Shown: in pieces, positions 28,840-39,409 of the stretch | How the letters are laid out: the number at the start of each line of letters is the position of its first letter | Numbering within the stretch: position 1 is the first letter of the stretch | From: Vampirovibrionales bacterium | GTDB lineage: Bacteria; Cyanobacteriota; Vampirovibrionia; Vampirovibrionales; Vampirovibrionaceae | Length of the DNA: 64,000 nt | NCBI GenBank assembly: GCA_029262635.1 | Contig: JAJCZA010000002.1 | Coordinates: 62,001 to 126,000 of the forward strand | Direction: 5' to 3' | Notes under the pieces: model-generated | The model's database searches: none | Seen by the model: only the letters and a program-made list of their open reading frames with translations | What the model was told of the DNA's origin: nothing | Translations under genes and position numbers: made by a program

Positions 28840-29152
28840 CTTGGGATTTTAGCGTAAAACTCGTCGGCTGGGAATGCGATTTTAAGAAGGTGCATGAATG
28901 AGAGCGTTAATTTCCAGCTCTGAAGACTCTGAATATTTCATATTGTAAAGAAATGGAGGGGTGTGCTTAAAAGGGCTGAAATTACTTCTTTGCAAAGGTT
29001 TTCAGTTTTGGTCATGGGTGTGTTTTGAAAAAAGAGTGCATGAAAAACAGGTGGGTTTTTAAACTATATCAAAAGTATGCCGATAGTATTTTAAATAGAT
29101 GAATTATTGGAAAATAGGAATAGGTAGAAGAAGTATTTTTGAGGGAAAGTTT
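28840..29152. other. Leader region of the pilin-like array
   Basis: No gene is seen. It carries the promoters of gatA (minus) and of the array starting at 29153 (plus). TATATC at about 29068 and the AT-rich TATTTTAAATAG at about 29086 are candidate -10 elements. GAGGGAAAG lies 5 nt before the ATG at 29153. Confidence 0.4.
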
Positions 29153-30148
29153 ATGACCATCAAATCAAAAGCCTTATCCGGAAGTAGTTTAATGGAGTAT
29201 GCCTTGCCGATGGCTGTCTTCTTTTTAACGGGCGCCGTGGCTCTTTTAAGCGGTATGCCAGACATTTTTCAGACTTATTTTTCTGATTCGCTCAAAGGAA
29301 CCCAATCGGGTGATTCGGTTGCGGTCGTAGCTTATGGAGCTGTGGAACAATTGCCGGCACTTTATTCATCGCCCACATCGTTGGGAGCCCCGCCTCCAAG
29401 CATAGATGGGACGATCCTCGGGTTTGATCTCTCCGATTATCCGACGGATTTGTTATCAAGCATTGAAACAACCGGTGGAAACGGAACAACAAAGATTTTG
29501 TTGGCGACCTTGCAAAAGTACGTTGAAGAGCAAGTCGCTGCTGGTAAAATGAGCGTAGAAGACTCTCAGGCTTTGATTCAACTGTCAAATCAAGGGCATA
29601 AAATGGCCGAAATAGAAAAGCTTGTTGAGGATCGCTATGCGAATTCAAGTGGTTATGGAGAGTTCATGAAGCCCATTGCTTATGGTGGGGTTGTTTACTC
29701 TAATCCGAGCGAGTTGCTTGACGCGACCTTGGGCTGGGTTGGAGATGATGGCCGAGCGGATAAGCTGGTTGCCAACGATGAAATGTTAGACCCTTATGCC
29801 GATCAAACGAATCCGAACGTGTGGCAAATTGGAAACGAGACCCGAGAATTCGCGAAAATTTATCAAGAAGCCAAGGCGGCCGGACTGTTAAGTGATCCAG
29901 AAACCGATCTGGTTGTGACGGCCTTGGCCAAGCAAATTGCACTATTGAGCGGAACCATTCAACAGGGACCTAGTTATGTCGCAAATTGGGAAGACTATGC
30001 AAACGAGGTTCCTTACGAAGACGTGTTTAGCGTTGTGGTGGCCTCAGAAATAACCGATATTAACTCGGTCGGGATTTGTGCCGCTAACAATGGAAAAGAT
30101 AGCGGAGCTAAATGTAAAAAAGATAAAAAAGATAAAGACGATGACTAA
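29153..30148 (+). CDS. Large Flp-pilin-like protein, copy 1
   Basis: ATG 29153 has GAGGGAAAG upstream, so I prefer it over 29099. The 331-aa product begins with a short basic leader, then LSG^SSLMEYALP followed by a long hydrophobic helix and GMPD. This fits a class IVb (Flp) prepilin: Gly before the cut, Glu at +5, Tyr at +6. The large C-terminal domain ends with ITDINSVGICAA, a second Cys and a Lys/Asp tail. Normal Flp pilins are about 50-70 aa, so this is a much larger pilin-like protein. It heads a three-gene array. Confidence 0.75.
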   Translation: MTIKSKALSGSSLMEYALPMAVFFLTGAVALLSGMPDIFQTYFSDSLKGTQSGDSVAVVAYGAVEQLPALYSSPTSLGAPPPSIDGTILGFDLSDYPTDLLSSIETTGGNGTTKILLATLQKYVEEQVAAGKMSVEDSQALIQLSNQGHKMAEIEKLVEDRYANSSGYGEFMKPIAYGGVVYSNPSELLDATLGWVGDDGRADKLVANDEMLDPYADQTNPNVWQIGNETREFAKIYQEAKAAGLLSDPETDLVVTALAKQIALLSGTIQQGPSYVANWEDYANEVPYEDVFSVVVASEITDINSVGICAANNGKDSGAKCKKDKKDKDDD

Positions 30149-30213
30149 GTAGGATCATGATGCCTAGTGGGTGTGAGTCAAAAGTGGTTACAGGTGCATT
30201 TAAGGGAAAATTG

Positions 30214-31212
30214 ATGACCGTCAAATTAAAAGCTTTATCAGGGAACAGCTTACTGGAGTATGCGTTGCCGATGGTTGCCTTTTTTCTGACGGGTACCATG
30301 GCTCTTTTGAGTGGTATGCCCGATCTTCTGCAGGCTTATTTTACCGATACGGTTAAGGGGAACTCCTCGAGCCATTCGGTTGCTATTGCTGCCTATGGAA
30401 CCGTTGGAGCGGCGGCGCAAGTGCTAACACCCTCCTCACCAACGGAAACGGAGCCTGAAACCGAAACCCCGAACTTAGATGAGCCTCCTCTTAATGAGGA
30501 GGAAAGCATCAGTTTCGACTTATCCGATTACCCGACGGATCTGTTATCAACTATTGAAACAACCGGTGGAAACGGAACAACAACGCTTTTACTCTCGATC
30601 TTGGAGCGATATATTGAGCAGGAAGTTGCCGCAGGTAACATGACCGAGGAAGATTCTCAGATACTGATCCAACTGGCCAATCAGGGGCATAAAATGGCTG
30701 CAGTTGAGAAAATTGTTGAGGATCGCTATGCTAATTCAAGTAGTTACGACGAATTTTTGCAGCCGATTACTTATGACGGGGTTACTTATCCCAACCCGAG
30801 TGATTTGGTTGATGCAACCTTAGGCTGGGTTGGGAGTGAGGGTAACCCGAGTGGCCTGATTGCCTACGATATCATATTAGACCCTAATGCCGATCAAACG
30901 CACTCGGGTATATGGGAGATTGGCGGAGAGACACGAGAATTCGCAAGAATTTATCAGGAAGCCAAGGCCGCTGGGCGATTAAGTGATCCCACAACCGATC
31001 TGGTTGTGACCTCCCTGGCCGAGCAGATTTCAATGCTGAGTGGAACCATGCAACAAGCTCCCAATCATATGTATGTCGGTATCTTTCCAGGGACAGTTCC
31101 TTACGAAGATGCGTTTAGCAAGGTGATAGCATCAGAAATCACTGATATTAACTCGGTCGGGATTTGTGCGGCTGACGGTGGGGAGGATAGTGGCGTTCAG
31201 TGCAAAAAATGA
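30214..31212 (+). CDS. Large Flp-pilin-like protein, copy 2
   Basis: ATG 30214 follows TAAGGGA and gives 332 aa. Leader LSG^NSLLEYALP again shows the prepilin pattern. After the helix comes an acidic/Pro/Thr-rich linker (ETEPETETPNLDEPP), then a domain closely similar to copy 1: DYPTDLLS, ETTGGNGTT, QGHKMA, RYANSS, ETREFARIYQEAKAAG. The end ITDINSVGICAA with a second Cys is conserved. Its stop overlaps copy 3 by 4 nt. Confidence 0.75.
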   Translation: MTVKLKALSGNSLLEYALPMVAFFLTGTMALLSGMPDLLQAYFTDTVKGNSSSHSVAIAAYGTVGAAAQVLTPSSPTETEPETETPNLDEPPLNEEESISFDLSDYPTDLLSTIETTGGNGTTTLLLSILERYIEQEVAAGNMTEEDSQILIQLANQGHKMAAVEKIVEDRYANSSSYDEFLQPITYDGVTYPNPSDLVDATLGWVGSEGNPSGLIAYDIILDPNADQTHSGIWEIGGETREFARIYQEAKAAGRLSDPTTDLVVTSLAEQISMLSGTMQQAPNHMYVGIFPGTVPYEDAFSKVIASEITDINSVGICAADGGEDSGVQCKK

Positions 31213-32147
31213 TGATAGTCAGATTAAAAGCTTTACCCGGGAACAGCTTACTTGAGTACGCGTTGCCGGTGGCTGTTTTTTTTCTGACGGGTGCCCTGGC
31301 TCTTTTGAGTGGTATGCCCGATGTTATGCAGGCTTATTTTACGGATACGGTTAAGGGAACCCAATCGGGCCATTCGGTTGTCATTGCAGCCTATGGAAGC
31401 GTTGGAGCCGCGGCGCAAGCGCTAACATCCTCCTTACCACCAGAAACGCCTTCTTCGACGGGTAATGTTCAAATAATAACAGCGAACGGCACAACGATTA
31501 ATCTGGAAGGCTATTCTCCATTGTTTTCCGACTCTATCGAAACCACGGGGGCCAATGGAACAACACTTAGCTTGTATTCAAGCCTTATGCATATTGCTCA
31601 AGAGTTGGAGTCAGCCGGTGAAGTCGATGCTGCTCAAGCTAATTTGCTTCGAGATTTGGCCAATCAAGGCCATCGAATCGCTGAAATTGAAGGACTGATC
31701 GAAACGGCCGCTCAGCAAGCCAGTAGTGTCGCCGAGTATAATTCAGTTGATCTTACCTTTGATGGTCAAAGCTATAAGACTTTTGAACTGGAGGCGTTAC
31801 TAGGCTGGAGTGCCAATGGTTCCGCCACACCTGAGAATATTTCTTCCAATGCCTTAGATGCCACTGGAGCAAGCCCTGAAACCGCCACGTTTATTGCTCT
31901 TTATGAGTCCGTCCTTGCCTCAGGCGCATTGGATGATCCAGCTGTTATGGGCATCGTTACGGGGCTTTCGGGCGAGATCGCTTATCTCACCGAGCTGACC
32001 GAACATGCTTCGGCACTCGTTGGCCGGGAAGAAAAACCGTTGAGTGAATTTAATTCAACCATGGTTTCCGAAACAACACATTATGACTCTGAATTGATTT
32101 GCAATCAGGGTAACGGAGCAGAGGATACCGGGGTCTCTTGCCCTTAA
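31209..32147 (+). CDS. Large Flp-pilin-like protein, copy 3 (diverged)
   Basis: ATG 31209 lies inside the ATGA overlap with copy 2, indicating translational coupling. The 312-aa product has LPG^NSLLEYALPV, a long hydrophobic helix and GMPDVMQAYF, so the N-terminal 45 residues match copies 1-2. The C-terminal domain keeps ETTGANGTT, a helix with NQGHRIAEIE, and a two-Cys end (ELICNQGNGAEDTGVSCP), but is otherwise diverged. Such a protein would be processed by a prepilin peptidase and displayed as pilus subunit or adhesin. Confidence 0.73.
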   Translation: MMIVRLKALPGNSLLEYALPVAVFFLTGALALLSGMPDVMQAYFTDTVKGTQSGHSVVIAAYGSVGAAAQALTSSLPPETPSSTGNVQIITANGTTINLEGYSPLFSDSIETTGANGTTLSLYSSLMHIAQELESAGEVDAAQANLLRDLANQGHRIAEIEGLIETAAQQASSVAEYNSVDLTFDGQSYKTFELEALLGWSANGSATPENISSNALDATGASPETATFIALYESVLASGALDDPAVMGIVTGLSGEIAYLTELTEHASALVGREEKPLSEFNSTMVSETTHYDSELICNQGNGAEDTGVSCP

Positions 32148-33279: not shown

Positions 33280-33373
33280 CTTCTCGGATGACATCATCTT
33301 TTAATTAACCGTTTCATTTACACTTCCTTTGGTCTACCGTAAAGGGAATACCATACCAAGGGGAGATATTGGC

Positions 33374-34342
33374 GTGTCTGTGGCTCAAAAATTAAAAATT
33401 GCCTCACCTCGTGAAAAATCAAACATAAAAACAGGTCTATTGGCCCTTTCGGGGATTCAGTGGGAAGAGAAGCCAGAGCAGTATTGTGATTACCGGCTAG
33501 ATGGCCGAGGCCCGGAAGGCTGGCTGAGAGTCAAGCAATATACCAATGGTACGCTTTATATTGAGGCCAGTGCCATGGCGTTGATGAGTCGGCTGGTTGC
33601 GTTTATTCCAGGAATCGAGGCACCGATAACGAATGGCACTGGTGGAGGTGCAGCGACCTCTGTATCGGCCAAGCCTTCTGGAAAATTAGATATTCAAGGC
33701 GCTTATGTCGGGACCGATGAATCGGGCAAGGGCGACTTCTTTGGTTCGCTGGTCATTGCCGGGGTGTACGTAACCGAGGAAACCATCCCAATCCTGATTG
33801 AATTAGGCGTGATGGACAGCAAGAAACTGACGGATAAGACCATGGCGGGCCTGGCGATGGACATTGTTCAGGTGGTGGGAGAACAGGCAATCTCCTGTGT
33901 TGAATTGGCCCCTAAGCGCTATAACGAGTTGTATCAGGAATTTAAGCAAAATGGGAAAAACCTGAACCATCTGCTGGCCTGGGGACATGCCACGGTCATT
34001 GAAAACTTGCTGATTGCTAACCCGGAGTGCATGCAGGCCGTGGCCGATCAGTTTGGGAATGAGCGTTATATCCTGTCTCAATTAAAAGAGAAGGGAAAGC
34101 AGATTAAATTGTATCAAACGCCTCGGGCGGAAGCCAATGTGGGGGTGGCGGCGGCGAGTATTATTGCCCGGAACCGTTTTGTTCAACGCATGGAACGATT
34201 GAACCAGGATTTTGGCTTGCCTTTTTCAAAAGGTGCCAATCCCATCGTGAAAAACCAGGCGCGTGCGTTTCTTCAAAAATTTGGCCGTGGGCGACTCAAC
34301 GAAATCGCCAAACTCCATTTTAAAACCGCCAACGAACTTTAA
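33374..34342 (+). CDS. rnhC: Ribonuclease HIII
   Basis: The frame is open from TTG 33329, but GTG 33374 has GGGGAG 8 nt upstream, giving 322 aa. An N-terminal TBP-like region (about residues 1-90) precedes the catalytic domain with GTDESGKGDFFG around residue 115, where Asp/Glu/Gly are the metal ligands. Later D-S-K-K-L and the HxxxxxN region fit RNase HIII. It cleaves the RNA strand of RNA-DNA hybrids. The TBP-like domain separates it from RNase HII. Confidence 0.9.
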   Translation: MSVAQKLKIASPREKSNIKTGLLALSGIQWEEKPEQYCDYRLDGRGPEGWLRVKQYTNGTLYIEASAMALMSRLVAFIPGIEAPITNGTGGGAATSVSAKPSGKLDIQGAYVGTDESGKGDFFGSLVIAGVYVTEETIPILIELGVMDSKKLTDKTMAGLAMDIVQVVGEQAISCVELAPKRYNELYQEFKQNGKNLNHLLAWGHATVIENLLIANPECMQAVADQFGNERYILSQLKEKGKQIKLYQTPRAEANVGVAAASIIARNRFVQRMERLNQDFGLPFSKGANPIVKNQARAFLQKFGRGRLNEIAKLHFKTANEL

Positions 34343-34365
34343 TTTATGAATTTAAGATAACAGGC

Positions 34366-35073
34366 TTATTGCATGTTGAAAACGTTTCGAGCGGTGGTGT
34401 TTAAGTTATATTCTTTAAGCACATAGTCGGCGGCCTGACCAGTGTTGTTTGGGTTCATTATAAATTGGTTCTCTAAAAAAATTCGCTTCTTGAGGGTGGA
34501 AACGCCAGCGGTTTCGGGGGTCTCGTCGATTTTTCGTTGGTTTAGTCCCGTTTCCGTGACGGAGAGACTATAGCCATCGGCTAGCTTTATTCCCTCTGGG
34601 AGAGGTGAATTTTCAATTTCAGTGGTAATGACCGGTTTAAAAGCCTCTCTGGGTACCACTTCAACCACATTTCGTGCGGTGAGTTCATCCAACGTGAGTT
34701 TTTGATCCGGCGCACCACCCTTGCCGTTGCCGCGGTCAAAGGCTTTCATAAACCCTTGAGCTCTTTCTTCCGCAAATGCGTTGACTTCAGGATCGTCCAA
34801 ACCATCCCGGAAAAAATGCTGAAGCTCCTTGAGTGTAATCATGCCATCGGCTTTTGTCCTGGGCGCTTTTCCGTCGACGAGCTCCATGTCTTTTTTCGTG
34901 TAGGCCATGATGTTTTCGATGGCCTCGGCAGAGAGTTGAATGCTATCTTCCTGTTGAATAATCGTATTTTCCGGTGTAATACGGATGTCAGCCTCAAAAC
35001 GATTAAGTTTATCCATTTGTTGTACAGCGGTAGCCACTTGAAGTCCATATTGTCCCGGGCGCTGAATTGACAT
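34366..35073 (-). CDS. Hypothetical protein with EF-hand-like motifs
   Basis: This 235-aa protein has AGGGGAA before ATG. Two stretches resemble calcium-binding loops: DGKAPRTKADGMITLKEL and DRGNGKGGAPDQKLTLDEL, each with Asp/Gly ligands and a following Leu-Glu-Leu helix, although spacing is non-standard. No signal peptide is seen. Converging on rnhC with 23 nt between them. Calcium binding is only a suggestion. Confidence 0.55.
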   Translation of the reverse strand: MSIQRPGQYGLQVATAVQQMDKLNRFEADIRITPENTIIQQEDSIQLSAEAIENIMAYTKKDMELVDGKAPRTKADGMITLKELQHFFRDGLDDPEVNAFAEERAQGFMKAFDRGNGKGGAPDQKLTLDELTARNVVEVVPREAFKPVITTEIENSPLPEGIKLADGYSLSVTETGLNQRKIDETPETAGVSTLKKRIFLENQFIMNPNNTGQAADYVLKEYNLNTTARNVFNMQ

Positions 35074-35166
35074 AAGTATTCCCCTGTTTTTGTGTTGTTT
35101 TATCGTTTCATTTCTATTTTAGTAAAACAGGAAAAAGAAAAAAGATGCGTTTTGATTGAAATTTTG

Positions 35167-35172
35167 TATAAT
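35167..35172 (+). promoter_or_regulatory. -10 box TATAAT before the riboswitch
   Basis: A perfect TATAAT lies immediately before the predicted cobalamin riboswitch. No strong -35 is found at the right spacing, so an extended or activator-dependent promoter is possible. Confidence 0.55.
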
Positions 35173-35175
35173 AAG

Positions 35176-35266
35176 GGAGTCTGTTCGGGAAATTTGGTGA
35201 AATGCCGAAGCTGTGCCGCAACTGTAACCTGTTATTTTCAGGGAGCCAGAATACCAGAGACAGATG
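35176..35266 (+). promoter_or_regulatory. Cobalamin (B12) riboswitch
   Basis: The strand shows the conserved cobalamin-riboswitch core in order: CGGGAA, GGTGAAATGCCGAAGC, GTGCCGCAACTGTAA and then GAGCCAGAATACC. The flanking TCTGT and ACAGA can form P1. The only gene downstream on this strand is the membrane protein starting near 35326, about 60 nt away, so translation or transcription of that gene should fall when B12 is high. Confidence 0.88.
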
Positions 35267-35325
35267 ATTCCGCTTTTTTCAAAGCTTACCTCACTGGCTT
35301 GCGAGCACAAGAAAGAGACACTGCG

Positions 35326-36648
35326 TTGACTATTTCCCCTCCTCATTCGATCATGCCAAAAACATTCGCTGACTTTACGTCTTTGGCTTCGAATACCGAT
35401 TCTCCCTATATGACCTCTCTATCAGGTCAAACGTTTGGGAAGACCCCACCCTGGATCACTCAGCAAGAAGGGGAAAAAGTATTTCAGTCGGAGGGTGTTA
35501 TTTCCTTAAAACGTGCTGGGACTTTATTTGCATTGGGTGTTGCCGGTGCGTATGGCGGGAGCGCCATTTACAAGAAAATGTTTAAAGAGGTTGGGAAGGG
35601 TGTTGCCTTAAAAAATTTAAAGGGTTTTGAAAAAACGGTTCACAACGAGAGTCAAACGTACCTGAATATTCAGAATCCTTTGCTGGCACTTTATACCATG
35701 GCCGTTGAAAAGCCTGAATTTAAAAAAGTGTTTGGCACGTATATTGGTGCCAGTATTTTGGGCTATCTTTCGTCCAGCTTAATGCAAGGAGCGCAAGAAG
35801 CCTGGGTTCGACGGGAAGAGATGGGGATTCGAGCCAAGCTGATTGCCCGGATGAATGGCACGTTTCAACAGAGTATTCGCATTAAGCAAAATATGGATGA
35901 TGTGTTGCACACTCGGGCACGTCAACAGATTCAAATCCTTTTGCAACAGCATCAAATTGCTCATATTGAGAGATTAATGGACGAGACCCTCCAAGTAGAA
36001 TCTCCAGAGATTAATCGGCATTATTTTTATGAGCCAACCCACCGAACATCATCCTCCCTCCATTTTGGGGGAGATGCCCGTTCTTTTGGCGAACCTTTCA
36101 AGGATTCTTCGCCTGATTTTATCAAAGCCCTGGATGTGTTCTTTGTAGGTGTTGGGGTTTCTGTGGGTTTGCTGCTTCAAGGCTTTGGTAAAGTGGTTAA
36201 AACATTGGGCGGTGCGCTTCGAACGTCAGTCAATAAGGATCAGATGATTAAAAGCGTTTCTCTGTACGATAGCGAAGCGTTACTGGCTTTATTAAACAGT
36301 AAAATGACCGTGTTAAGCTATGGTCTTCTGGTGGGTGTAGCGGCGGCCGGTAAGTTGGTGGTCGATGGGCTTCGAGAGATTGAAGTAACTCAGGTTCATT
36401 CAGCGACAGAGTATCGGTACCAAAAACACAATTGGGAAGTGTTGGATCCGGGGTTTCATCGAATCTCTGAAGAAGAAGCGCTCAATTATGCGTTAAAGCA
36501 ATTGGCGCGGGATTTATCACGCTTGAAACGCAACCCGAAAAAATTAAGAGAACGGATTCAGGCGATTTTAACCAACATCGGCCGAAATTCTGCCCCCAAC
36601 TATTTCCCCATGACCCCGCCGGTTGGGTTGGTTGTGGCCCGAAGTTAA
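35326..36648 (+). CDS. B12-riboswitch-controlled membrane protein of unknown function
   Basis: I prefer TTG 35326 with AAAGAGA upstream (440 aa) because MTISPPHSIMPKTF resembles N-termini of other small proteins here (for example MINTISPQAIQPKF). ATG 35353 is the alternative. The protein has about four hydrophobic segments (near residues 70-90, 130-150, 280-300 and 335-355) and an amphipathic middle. It contains an internal HFGG. No transporter, corrinoid or enzyme signature is visible, so the B12-linked role is unknown. Confidence 0.65.
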   Translation: MTISPPHSIMPKTFADFTSLASNTDSPYMTSLSGQTFGKTPPWITQQEGEKVFQSEGVISLKRAGTLFALGVAGAYGGSAIYKKMFKEVGKGVALKNLKGFEKTVHNESQTYLNIQNPLLALYTMAVEKPEFKKVFGTYIGASILGYLSSSLMQGAQEAWVRREEMGIRAKLIARMNGTFQQSIRIKQNMDDVLHTRARQQIQILLQQHQIAHIERLMDETLQVESPEINRHYFYEPTHRTSSSLHFGGDARSFGEPFKDSSPDFIKALDVFFVGVGVSVGLLLQGFGKVVKTLGGALRTSVNKDQMIKSVSLYDSEALLALLNSKMTVLSYGLLVGVAAAGKLVVDGLREIEVTQVHSATEYRYQKHNWEVLDPGFHRISEEEALNYALKQLARDLSRLKRNPKKLRERIQAILTNIGRNSAPNYFPMTPPVGLVVARS

Positions 36649-36687
36649 ACGAGGCCAGGCTAAAGAGATTTAACTTTTTGCTTGAAT

Positions 36688-37539
36688 CTAACGAGCGATT
36701 AGGGCTTGGTACTCGCTGGCGGAAATAAATTTGAAATTTCCATGGATTCTGGAGGCATCGAGCTTGAGTATTGAGCCCTCCGGTTGGTTGATGATTAGTT
36801 GGGGGTGGTCAGGGTCGGTTTCATCTACTTGGGAGCCCTCCGGATAGACAATTAGCCCGGGGTTCATTTTGTTGTCAGTGTTCTTAAAGAAAATCTGGCT
36901 GGTTTCACCCAGAACGGCTGCTCGTTCTAACCGAAGTATGGGCGTGCCGGTATGTGGGTTACACCCTGTTAGTGTGATGTCACTATGGGCCGTTCCATAG
37001 AGCCTAACGCCTTCAGTGGATTGAATATCTCCTCCCACCACGCCAGAGTGCTGGATAAAAACACTCCCCTTATTGCTTTCTGCCTTGCCGAAGACCATCC
37101 CCTCTATAAATAAATTGCCTTCTAGAGAGGTTGCGTGGCCCACCTTTCCCGTTTCTCTGATGTCCATTCGTCCTTTAGCCGTAGCATGGCCTAAGATGGT
37201 TCCTTCTACGTCCATATCCGGGATGCCCTCCTCCTCTGGGAGGAGACTATTTGAGTAAGCGCTTTTAACGATCCCGGTTTGTTCGATGAGCATTCGCTTC
37301 GCTGAATAAGCATGGCTAAGCACTATACCTCCAACAAACATTCCCCCTTTGGATAAGGCGTTCAGGACGGTTGTTGATGGGGAAATAGATAACCCCTCAT
37401 TAGGAGTAAATGTTGTGTCCCCCGAAAACTGGATTGTATCCTGAGGGTGGGAGAATGAGAGTTTGGCTCCTGAGAATTGTGGTGTTTGTGGAGGTGCCAT
37501 TGGGCGAGGTTGGGCTGGCGAGAAGGAAAGTGAATGCAT
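36688..37539 (-). CDS. Bactofilin-like beta-helix protein with two QFSG motifs
   Basis: The 283-aa protein has two copies of the peptide QFSG in its first 40 residues (TPQFSG and DTIQFSG), then a repetitive segment from about residue 60 with regular hydrophobic spacing and short turns (G-x-A-x-S-x-x-G-x-V). That is typical of right-handed beta-helix polymer-forming (bactofilin-like) proteins. No signal peptide is seen. Such proteins form cytoplasmic or membrane-associated scaffolds. The assignment is by pattern only. Confidence 0.6.
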   Translation of the reverse strand: MHSLSFSPAQPRPMAPPQTPQFSGAKLSFSHPQDTIQFSGDTTFTPNEGLSISPSTTVLNALSKGGMFVGGIVLSHAYSAKRMLIEQTGIVKSAYSNSLLPEEEGIPDMDVEGTILGHATAKGRMDIRETGKVGHATSLEGNLFIEGMVFGKAESNKGSVFIQHSGVVGGDIQSTEGVRLYGTAHSDITLTGCNPHTGTPILRLERAAVLGETSQIFFKNTDNKMNPGLIVYPEGSQVDETDPDHPQLIINQPEGSILKLDASRIHGNFKFISASEYQALIAR

Positions 37540-37647
37540 TGAGCGGGGTCCTTTTTAATGGAAATGAGAATTAAAGGGGTATCCGAATAAAAGCACCCTC
37601 CCTCTTTTAATTGCTCTGAAGAAGTTAAAACATTAAAAAAGATGAAA

Positions 37648-38388
37648 TTAGCTGTGGTTTTCTACGCCGAGTAGGTATTGGTAGGAGGTGGGAACCACCT
37701 GCTGAGTCAGTTTCTCCAAGGCGTCGGCAAATTCCCGGATTTCATACTGAGCGCCGGGATGTTGGCGTAATTTAATAAAATTAACCAGCGCCTGAAGCGA
37801 GGCGGTCCAGTAGTATTCGGTGTAGATGCTCAGGGGTAGAACGCCGCGGGCTTGCTCGCGAGCTACGCCTGATTCAATGAGGTTCTGATAGAGTTTGAGC
37901 GAATTGTCGCAATGGGTGTCGTAAGCGGTTTTTAGTTTGCCGTCCGGGTCGCTGACGCAAACATTGGTAGAGGCTTGCTTGTTATCGTCCGATTGGGTTC
38001 GAAATCCGTCGGGGGTGTAAAAGTCAAATTCAGAGGCGTTAACATAACGCAAGCTCACTTCGTTCCAGGCATGATCCACAGTCGGCATTTCGCTGTAGGC
38101 AATCCCGACTACATGTTTGTACCATTGGCGAGCGACGAATTCGGGTACTTTGCAGTGAAACTGAAGTTGAACATGGCGAAACGGACTCCAGTGCTTGTGG
38201 TCAGCGAGGAATTTAATGAGCTTTTTATCCCCTTCCGAGAGTTCGGTTTTTCGTTTGCCAAATGACACACGAGCCGAGTTCACCACCGTTAGATCACTTC
38301 CCAAAGCGTCAACCAGCTCAACAAAACCGTGGTCCAGCACGTCAATATGGCGGGTCTCTGTCTGTTCGTTTGTCATTACCGGACTCAT
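37648..38388 (-). CDS. thyX: FAD-dependent thymidylate synthase ThyX
   Basis: ATG 38388 (MSPVMTNEQ), with GAGGAAC upstream, gives 246 aa; the frame extends further to 38475. It has WSPFRHVQLQF, VARQWYKHVVG and WNEVSLRYV. The classic ThyX RHRxxSxNE motif appears here as RQWYKHxxG with an insertion before NEVSLRY, which resembles the cyanobacterial/cyanophage ThyX form. It methylates dUMP to dTMP using methylene-THF, NAD(P)H and FAD, linking dcd and folate genes of the window. Confidence 0.9.
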   Translation of the reverse strand: MSPVMTNEQTETRHIDVLDHGFVELVDALGSDLTVVNSARVSFGKRKTELSEGDKKLIKFLADHKHWSPFRHVQLQFHCKVPEFVARQWYKHVVGIAYSEMPTVDHAWNEVSLRYVNASEFDFYTPDGFRTQSDDNKQASTNVCVSDPDGKLKTAYDTHCDNSLKLYQNLIESGVAREQARGVLPLSIYTEYYWTASLQALVNFIKLRQHPGAQYEIREFADALEKLTQQVVPTSYQYLLGVENHS

Positions 38389-38551
38389 GGCAAAAGTTCC
38401 TCTCTCAATCTCTAAACTGTCTCTATTGTAATGGGTTTCAGTCGGAACCCCAAGGCATGTTAAGGGCTTTGCCATGAGTCTTTACAGTCCCGTCTACTTT
38501 AGTTACTATTGGCCTAGCAAATTAGAGGGATAAATTAAGGAGATAGAAATC

Positions 38552-38953
38552 ATGATCAACACAATAAGCCCACAAGCCATCCAGCCCAAATTTGGTATTC
38601 CAGGAGTGGAAAGGGAAGAAAGGTCCTTTAGCACGAGTCTGGCCAACTGGCTTCATTCGATGAAGGATGAAAATGAAGGTCGCACTCCCACGAATGAAAA
38701 CCACCCTGCAAGCCAACCTCCCAGGTATACAAATTTTATTAAAGGGAATTTATGGGAAACGCTTCCACTGTTTCAACAGCCCGTTGCTTCACCGCAATTG
38801 TTAACCCAATGGGTTCGCCGATTAGCGGTCGAGTCGGCGTTTCATGATATTGGGAAGCCCGGAGATGAAATACCCGTGATGAAGCATATTTTAAACACGG
38901 AGCCGAATTTACCCCCAGATTTTCGGGAACACTTGGTCAACTTAACCGCTTAA
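38552..38953 (+). CDS. QPKFG-motif protein, array member 1
   Basis: This 133-aa protein starts MINTISPQAIQPKFGIPG; the I-Q-P-K-F-G peptide ends at residue 15. Later, QPVASPQLLTQWVRRLAVES matches member 2, and N-terminal residues match member 3. It has no signal peptide or membrane segment. The start is preceded by GGAGATAG. It is one of three tandem, modular small genes. Function is unknown. Confidence 0.65.
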   Translation: MINTISPQAIQPKFGIPGVEREERSFSTSLANWLHSMKDENEGRTPTNENHPASQPPRYTNFIKGNLWETLPLFQQPVASPQLLTQWVRRLAVESAFHDIGKPGDEIPVMKHILNTEPNLPPDFREHLVNLTA

Positions 38954-39094: not shown

Positions 39095-39409
39095 ATGTTA
39101 AATTTGCAATCTGTACAACCCAAATTTGGGTGGCTTGGCTCTGAGTGGATTAGCCCTATGAAGACTTTCGATAAAAGGGTCTCAGAGAAACTCAATGTGG
39201 AATTAATGAACCTTGGCCCTTTATTTGAACAAAAGCCGTCAGTAGAGCTTCTTCTTCCTTGGGTACAGCAATATGCATTAGAATCCACCTTGAGAAAGGG
39301 GACAAGAGCAGAAAAAAAGCAGGCTCTTGAAAATACGCATCAGCCTTCCAATGATTTACCACTTGTACTTCGAGCACGGCTTCAGGAGCGTATGGACTTA
39401 TATGCTTAG
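39095..39409 (+). CDS. QPKFG-motif protein, array member 2
   Basis: This 104-aa protein begins MLNLQSVQPKFGWLG. A central stretch LLPWVQQYALEST is similar to LLTQWVRRLAVES of member 1, showing paralogy. AAAAGGAGA precedes ATG. No known domain is recognised. Confidence 0.65.
   Translation: MLNLQSVQPKFGWLGSEWISPMKTFDKRVSEKLNVELMNLGPLFEQKPSVELLLPWVQQYALESTLRKGTRAEKKQALENTHQPSNDLPLVLRARLQERMDLYA

What the first reader, a model, noticed from the sequence alone, without database searches (positions are those of the whole stretch)
35167..36648. Cobalamin riboswitch controls a membrane protein of unknown function
Seen: the conserved B12-riboswitch elements (GGTGAAATGCC, GCCGCAACTGTAA, GAGCCAGAATACC) lie in order, directly after a TATAAT box and before an ORF for a 440-aa protein with about four hydrophobic segments. 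Known: these riboswitches normally control B12 synthesis, uptake or B12-independent isoenzymes. The protein has none of the usual signatures (BtuB, BtuFCD, Cbi, NrdJ, MetE). Inference: it may be a new B12-related membrane component, or a B12-repressed effector.
Basis: partly seen in the sequence, partly recalled or inferred. Interest (0 to 1): 0.75.

Follow-up and report, generated by a model that had tools for sequence, protein, structure and literature searches.

The report
B12 switch on unknown membrane protein
A vitamin B12-sensing RNA switch controls an uncharacterised membrane protein in predatory and gut relatives of cyanobacteria; the pairing is old and widely kept, and the protein may belong to a B12 uptake route not yet described.

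Summary
A compact cobalamin riboswitch lies at 35188-35255, below Rfam's cut-off (27.7 of 31.5 bits) but significant (E 4.4e-5 genome-wide). A model built from relatives without this sequence scores it 93 bits (E 1.5e-21). A conserved P13/L13 hairpin, its loop complementary to L5, sits just before the start codon, so the switch most likely blocks translation when B12 binds.

The downstream protein (440 or 431 aa) has no known family or fold match. It is an internally duplicated, about 4-TM membrane protein found across the class Vampirovibrionia. A B12 riboswitch lies upstream of its relatives in 9 of 13 genomes of the order and in 47 of 48 loci examined outside it, where it forms an A-B-C operon. 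Other riboswitch targets there are textbook: btuB-F-D-C in one genus that lacks this protein, and nrdAB and nrdDG. Of 46 genomes tested, none has CobS or an ECF T-component, and BtuC occurs only in the 5 that lack the protein.

Best reading: a B12-starvation protein, most likely part of an undescribed B12-acquisition route. The regulation is well supported; the transport role is inferred.

The parts
35167..35172 (+). TATAAT box, possible -10 element; no -35 match found
   Evidence: sequence; promoter scan does not list it
35188..35255 (+). B12 riboswitch aptamer core
   Evidence: RF00174 27.7 bits, E 5e-5; E 4.4e-5 genome-wide
35166..35320 (+). full leader element: aptamer plus P13/L13 hairpin
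   Evidence: leave-one-out lineage model, 93.1 bits, E 1.5e-21; covariation
35214..35218 (+). L5 stretch (UGCCG) complementary to L13
   Evidence: five L5-L13 pairs possible and invariant in 16 of 16 leaders
35298..35311 (+). P13/L13 hairpin CUUG-CGAGCA-CAAG, expression platform
   Evidence: present in 16 of 16 leaders; stem covaries
35309..35318 (+). weak Shine-Dalgarno-like purine stretch overlapping the 3' arm of P13
   Evidence: sequence; stronger AAGGAG at this place in G001 and G004
35326..36648 (+). uncharacterised membrane protein gene, 440 aa from TTG 35326, or 431 aa from ATG 35353
   Evidence: open frame; relatives in 12 of 18 order genomes, and across the class
35665..35967 (+). 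internal repeat 1 (aa 105-205): membrane segment running into a long charged helix
   Evidence: hhalign with repeat 2: probability 97%, E 3.9e-11; five control pairs under 6%; helix 123-199 in AlphaFold model
36121..36177 (+). hydrophobic segment aa 257-275, likely transmembrane
   Evidence: Kyte-Doolittle mean 2.04
36250..36537 (+). internal repeat 2 (aa 300-395)
   Evidence: hhalign; helix 317-391

Best explanation
The leader is a compact B12 riboswitch that acts on translation. With B12 bound, loop L5 kisses L13, P13 is held closed and the ribosome-binding region is blocked; without B12 the membrane protein is made (anatomy shown; action inferred from known switches of this layout). The protein is therefore a B12-starvation product. 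It is most likely the membrane part of an undescribed B12-acquisition route, used by Vampirovibrionia that cannot complete cobalamin and lack BtuCD and ECF importers. In gut relatives it lies in an operon with two partners, A and C. The transport step is inference.
For: Riboswitch. Hairpin before the start codon in 16 of 16 leaders. Riboswitch upstream of relatives in 9 of 13 order genomes and 47 of 48 loci outside. Other targets of the same switch are uptake genes (btuB-F-D-C, g6) and B12-independent reductases, so this gene fills the uptake place. CobS 0 of 46, ECF T-component 0 of 46, BtuC only in the 5 of 18 order genomes that lack this gene and 0 of 28 others. The window's genome needs B12: MetH and NrdJ above cut-off.
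Against: No transporter family or fold resemblance. No ATPase or binding-protein partner beside it; in the window it stands alone. The exclusion with BtuC in the order rests on one genus, so possibly one event, and the 28 other genomes were chosen for having the gene. Four f3 genomes have the gene without a riboswitch although they show B12-binding domains. G012 has the pair but no B12-binding domain at E<=0.001 and no NrdJ above cut-off; G011 has only a weak one. BacA-type B12 transporters and TonB receptors were not searched.
Confidence: 0.45

Rival explanations
1. The protein belongs to the B12-starvation response but does not carry B12: for example a membrane scaffold or envelope change that serves attachment to prey or host, or part of a bypass of a B12-dependent step.
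For: Long charged helices and duplicated membrane unit without transporter resemblance. Partners A (Cys/His motif) and C show no transport features. The pair is kept in G012, which shows no MetH or NrdJ above cut-off. B12 switches on genes of uncertain function are known (ppe2 of M. tuberculosis; PMC11260477 passages).
Against: Does not explain why BtuC is absent wherever the gene was found, nor how these genomes get B12 without CobS, BtuC or ECF.
Confidence: 0.33
2. The protein handles B12 or cobalt after entry (trafficking, storage, metal supply) rather than import.
For: Same regulation and distribution evidence. Partner A has a conserved CPHGxPxGACPIC motif that could bind metal; metal binding is a guess from the motif.
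Against: Membrane-embedded duplicated architecture suggests work at the membrane; A's weak match to cobalamin adenosyltransferase (16.5 bits against a cut-off of 108) is in one of two proteins tested and is taken as chance.
Confidence: 0.16
3. The riboswitch is a decayed relic or chance match and does not control the gene.
For: Score below the Rfam cut-off, weak Shine-Dalgarno here, folding energy no better than shuffles.
Against: Leave-one-out model E 1.5e-21, covariation, same position upstream of the same gene in 9 genomes, no promoter beyond chance in between.
Confidence: 0.03

Closest known systems
Cobalamin riboswitches RF00174 and AdoCbl-II RF01689, translational layout with L5-L13 kissing loop
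   Same: Core motifs, L5-L13 complementarity and a hairpin over the ribosome-binding region
   Different: Compact: model positions 1-45 and 169-189 are not matched; below the Rfam cut-off; controls a gene of no known B12 family
btuB-btuF-btuD-btuC operon under a B12 riboswitch (genus g6 of the same family)
   Same: Same riboswitch type with the same P13/L13 hairpin; same order of bacteria
   Different: TonB receptor, binding protein, ATPase and FecCD permease; this protein matches none of these, and g6 lacks it
ppe2 leader of M. tuberculosis (PMC11260477, passages read)
   Same: A B12 switch acting on translation of a gene of uncertain function; short upstream ORFs as in several relatives here
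   Different: Unrelated protein family; in the window the protein starts directly after the hairpin, without an upstream ORF
Rv1819c, BacA-type B12 transporter of M. tuberculosis (PMC3603451, abstract read)
   Same: Precedent for a B12 importer that replaces BtuFCD and was not recognisable beforehand
   Different: Rv1819c is an ABC-type protein; no ATPase domain is found in this protein

Membership tests
Cobalamin riboswitch (RF00174 clan) | Conserved core with B12 box and supporting helices | tested here: met
   RF00174 alignment E 5e-5; leave-one-out lineage model E 1.5e-21; covariation in 16 leaders
Cobalamin riboswitch (RF00174 clan) | Rfam curated score cut-off (a database inclusion rule, not a structural feature) | tested here: not met
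   27.7 bits against 31.5
Cobalamin riboswitch (RF00174 clan) | L5-L13 kissing loop | tested here: inconclusive
   Complementary in 16 of 16 but invariant, so no covariation evidence
Cobalamin riboswitch (RF00174 clan) | Binds cobalamin and changes expression | not testable with these tools
   needs bench work
BtuFCD B12 ABC importer | FecCD-type permease domain (PF01032) | tested here: not met
   protein has no Pfam match near cut-off; genome has no PF01032 match
ECF-type B12 importer | T-component (PF02361) in the genome | tested here: not met
   0 of 46 genomes
BtuB outer-membrane receptor | TonB-dependent barrel and plug domains | tested here: not met
   no such Pfam match; model is all helical
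BacA/Rv1819c-type B12 transporter | ABC-type ATPase domain in the protein | tested here: not met
   no ABC match in the protein; presence elsewhere in the genome not tested
Any solved fold | Structural match to the AlphaFold model | tested here: inconclusive
   mean pLDDT 66.4; Foldseek none at E<=0.001; VIA-align best Z 8.4 at rmsd 22.2 over 220 residues, uninformative for long helices

The most novel reading that the evidence does not exclude
This gene family (with partners A and C in gut members) is a B12 import system of a new kind, used throughout Vampirovibrionia in place of BtuFCD and switched on by B12 shortage.
Probability: 0.35. Interest if true: 0.85.

Novelty: new variant of a known kind. 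Interest (0 to 1): 0.62.

Why it matters
None of the 46 genomes tested has CobS, and 41 of them have neither BtuC nor an ECF T-component, so how these gut and predatory lineages obtain B12 is open. The riboswitch points to one conserved, testable gene family for that gap. It would also be a rare case of a lineage-wide riboswitch target of unknown function that can be assayed in E. coli uptake mutants.

Tried and rejected
Rejected: chance match (leave-one-out; covariation). Rejected: a second riboswitch in the genome; the other hit is 16.4 bits, E 0.078, and the lineage model finds nothing in that stretch, L056. Rejected: a known protein family; Pfam and NCBIfam give nothing near cut-off for the window protein. 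The PDB sequence search best is E 0.018, taken as chance. Fold searches led nowhere. The first AlphaFold run on 12 sequences was poor (pLDDT 56); the second used 33 (pLDDT 66). Leader folding in isolation was uninformative. A hidden riboswitch in the f3 relatives was sought with Rfam and with the lineage model and not found. Diverged copies of the protein in genus g6 were sought with the 12-row profile at E<=1 and not found.

B12-dependent enzymes in the gut family f4 were not searched.

Literature: searches listed no paper describing this family or its riboswitch, judged from titles and abstract starts; this covers open PubMed Central text only. Passages read: PMC4040986, PMC11260477, PMC3787301, PMC4451040. 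Abstract and outline read: PMC3603451. All other papers were seen as listings only.

Full report
WHAT IS THERE. The three motifs are in the sequence in the stated order. Rfam at curated cut-offs gives no cobalamin hit in the window. By E-value, RF00174 matches 35188-35255 (+) at 27.7 bits, under its cut-off of 31.5, with E 5e-5 and 4.4e-5 over the whole 3.0-Mb genome, where the only other hit is 16.4 bits. The match lacks model positions 1-45 and 169-189, so the element is compact. Neighbouring genes on both sides are on the other strand, so the gene stands alone.

INDEPENDENT TEST OF THE RNA. RF00174 at E<=0.1 finds an element in 14 of 18 genomes of the order, 17 matches in all. I aligned 16 leaders from these 14 genomes, leaving out the weak second hit of the window's genome. 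For a structure of 24 pairs, 89.3% of cells pair, 12 pairs have changes on both sides, and 0 of 500 shuffles reach the covariation score (0.294 against a mean of 0.155). Helix 5 is paired in only 65.6% of cells. Related sequences can exceed shuffles without structure, but slid versions also score far lower (same call). A covariance model from the 15 other leaders finds the window's element at 35166-35320 with 93.1 bits, E 1.5e-21, and nothing else in the window.

HOW THE SWITCH PROBABLY WORKS. Each of the 16 leaders has, downstream of the aptamer, a hairpin with loop pattern [G/A]CG[A/C]GCA[C/U]; in the window it is 35298-35311. Its loop can pair with L5 (UGCCG, 35214-35218) through five pairs that do not vary in 16 of 16, so they give no covariation evidence; the P13 stem does covary. 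In relatives the 3' arm of this hairpin runs into a Shine-Dalgarno sequence such as AAGGAG (G001, G004). In the window the purine stretch is weaker and the first in-frame start is TTG 35326 (440 aa), with ATG 35353 next. G003 and G011 also have a TTG near this place, G002 and G012 an ATG. This is the layout of translational L5-L13 B12 switches; the kissing loop is described for the M. tuberculosis switches in PMC11260477 (passages), and other naming of switch parts is recalled. That expression is off when B12 is bound is inferred. In gut relatives the leader before gene A instead appears to end in a hairpin and T-run (read by eye).

THE PROTEIN. No Pfam or NCBIfam family comes near its cut-off. 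Twelve sequences of the order, the window's included, align at 24-37% identity to it, and 33 align over the whole length, the class members at 12-15%. Two segments, aa 105-205 and 300-395, are copies of each other: hhalign probability 97%, E 3.9e-11, against under 6% for five control pairs. AlphaFold on the 33-row alignment gives mean pLDDT 66.4 with confident long helices 123-199 and 317-391. So the protein looks like a duplicated unit of membrane segments running into a long charged helix, about four membrane segments in all; the first of these is weak by hydropathy in the window's copy. No fold match was found, which says little at this confidence.

THE LINK IS OLD. In the order, the gene is found in 12 of 18 genomes plus a copy cut by a contig end in G004. 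Nine of these 13 have the riboswitch directly upstream; the four f3 genomes have none by whole-genome Rfam, local Rfam or the lineage model. In a phylum sample, 150 of 386 genomes match the profile, nearly all in the same class, many weakly. Named relatives from genome contigs are Vampirovibrionales and related MAGs; that family f4 is the gut group Gastranaerophilales is my inference. I examined 48 loci outside the order: the 28 best-scoring (L104-L131), then 20 weaker ones picked by hand across genera before any riboswitch test. A B12 riboswitch lies upstream in 27 of 28 (miss: L117, whose genome also has no RF01689 hit) and in 20 of 20. Of these 47, 32 are above the Rfam cut-off; the weakest is 25.3 bits, E 0.15 (L176). 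There the riboswitch precedes gene A (about 235 aa; CPHGxPxGACPIC motif in 28 of 28 and 17 of 20 loci by pattern), then this gene, then gene C (about 180 aa, whose printed output was cut, so I saw gene C in most but not all).

WHAT ELSE THE SWITCH CONTROLS. In genus g6, B12 riboswitches precede btuB with btuF, btuD and btuC genes, and nrdB-nrdA (domains checked for one operon, a second btuB and one nrdB). In f4, 13 of 14 further riboswitch loci precede an nrdD-like gene with nrdG (one nrdD checked by Pfam) and one precedes a B12-binding radical SAM protein. Uptake and B12-independent replacements are the two textbook kinds of target.

B12 ECONOMY. CobS is absent from 46 of 46 genomes and the ECF T-component from 46 of 46, while most control genomes ring (10 and 9 of 14). 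BtuC (PF01032) is in 5 of 18 order genomes, exactly the g6 genomes without this gene, and in 0 of 28 others. So 41 of 46 genomes lack all three, and all 41 have the gene; the 28 were chosen because they have it. The window's genome encodes MetH and a B12-dependent ribonucleotide reductase above cut-off. Draft genomes may miss genes.

FUNCTION. The gene sits in the uptake place of the regulon and in genomes without a recognised inner-membrane B12 importer, which is why B12 acquisition is my first reading. Against it: no transporter resemblance, partners without transport features, the BtuC exclusion in the order being perhaps one event, and two genomes (G011, G012) keeping the pair without a MetH-type or NrdJ hit above cut-off. 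M. tuberculosis shows both that B12 importers can go unrecognised (PMC3603451, abstract) and that B12 switches can control genes of uncertain function (PMC11260477, passages).

NOVELTY. The RNA is a compact member of a known riboswitch class. The target family and its class-wide pairing with B12 riboswitches are not described in the papers my searches listed.

Noticed in passing
L016, L009, L010, L011, L017, L007, L005 (g6) and L006, L008, L012, L004: Short ORFs of a few to 37 codons begin right after the P13 hairpin in these leaders, with the real gene further downstream; they resemble the riboswitch-controlled uORFs of M. tuberculosis.
   Followed up: partly
L144, L146-L157: Second B12 riboswitch in gut-family genomes precedes nrdD-nrdG-like genes (13 of 14 loci), and one (L145) a B12-binding radical SAM protein.
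   Followed up: partly
L104:547-1257 and equivalents: Partner gene A starts with a near-invariant CPHGxPxGACPIC motif, possibly metal-binding, of no known family.
   Followed up: partly
window 29099-32147: Three tandem paralogues (349, 351, 315 aa) share an N-terminal hydrophobic EYALP...FFLTG segment, pilin-like in look.
   Followed up: no
window 38552-38953 and 39095-39409: Two short neighbouring proteins share an N-terminal QPKFG motif.
   Followed up: no
window 33329-38475; L046:8362-11932: Gene order RNase HII-like, riboswitch, this gene, then a ThyX-like gene is shared with G010, with an extra bactofilin-like gene in the window (ThyX by eye).
   Followed up: no
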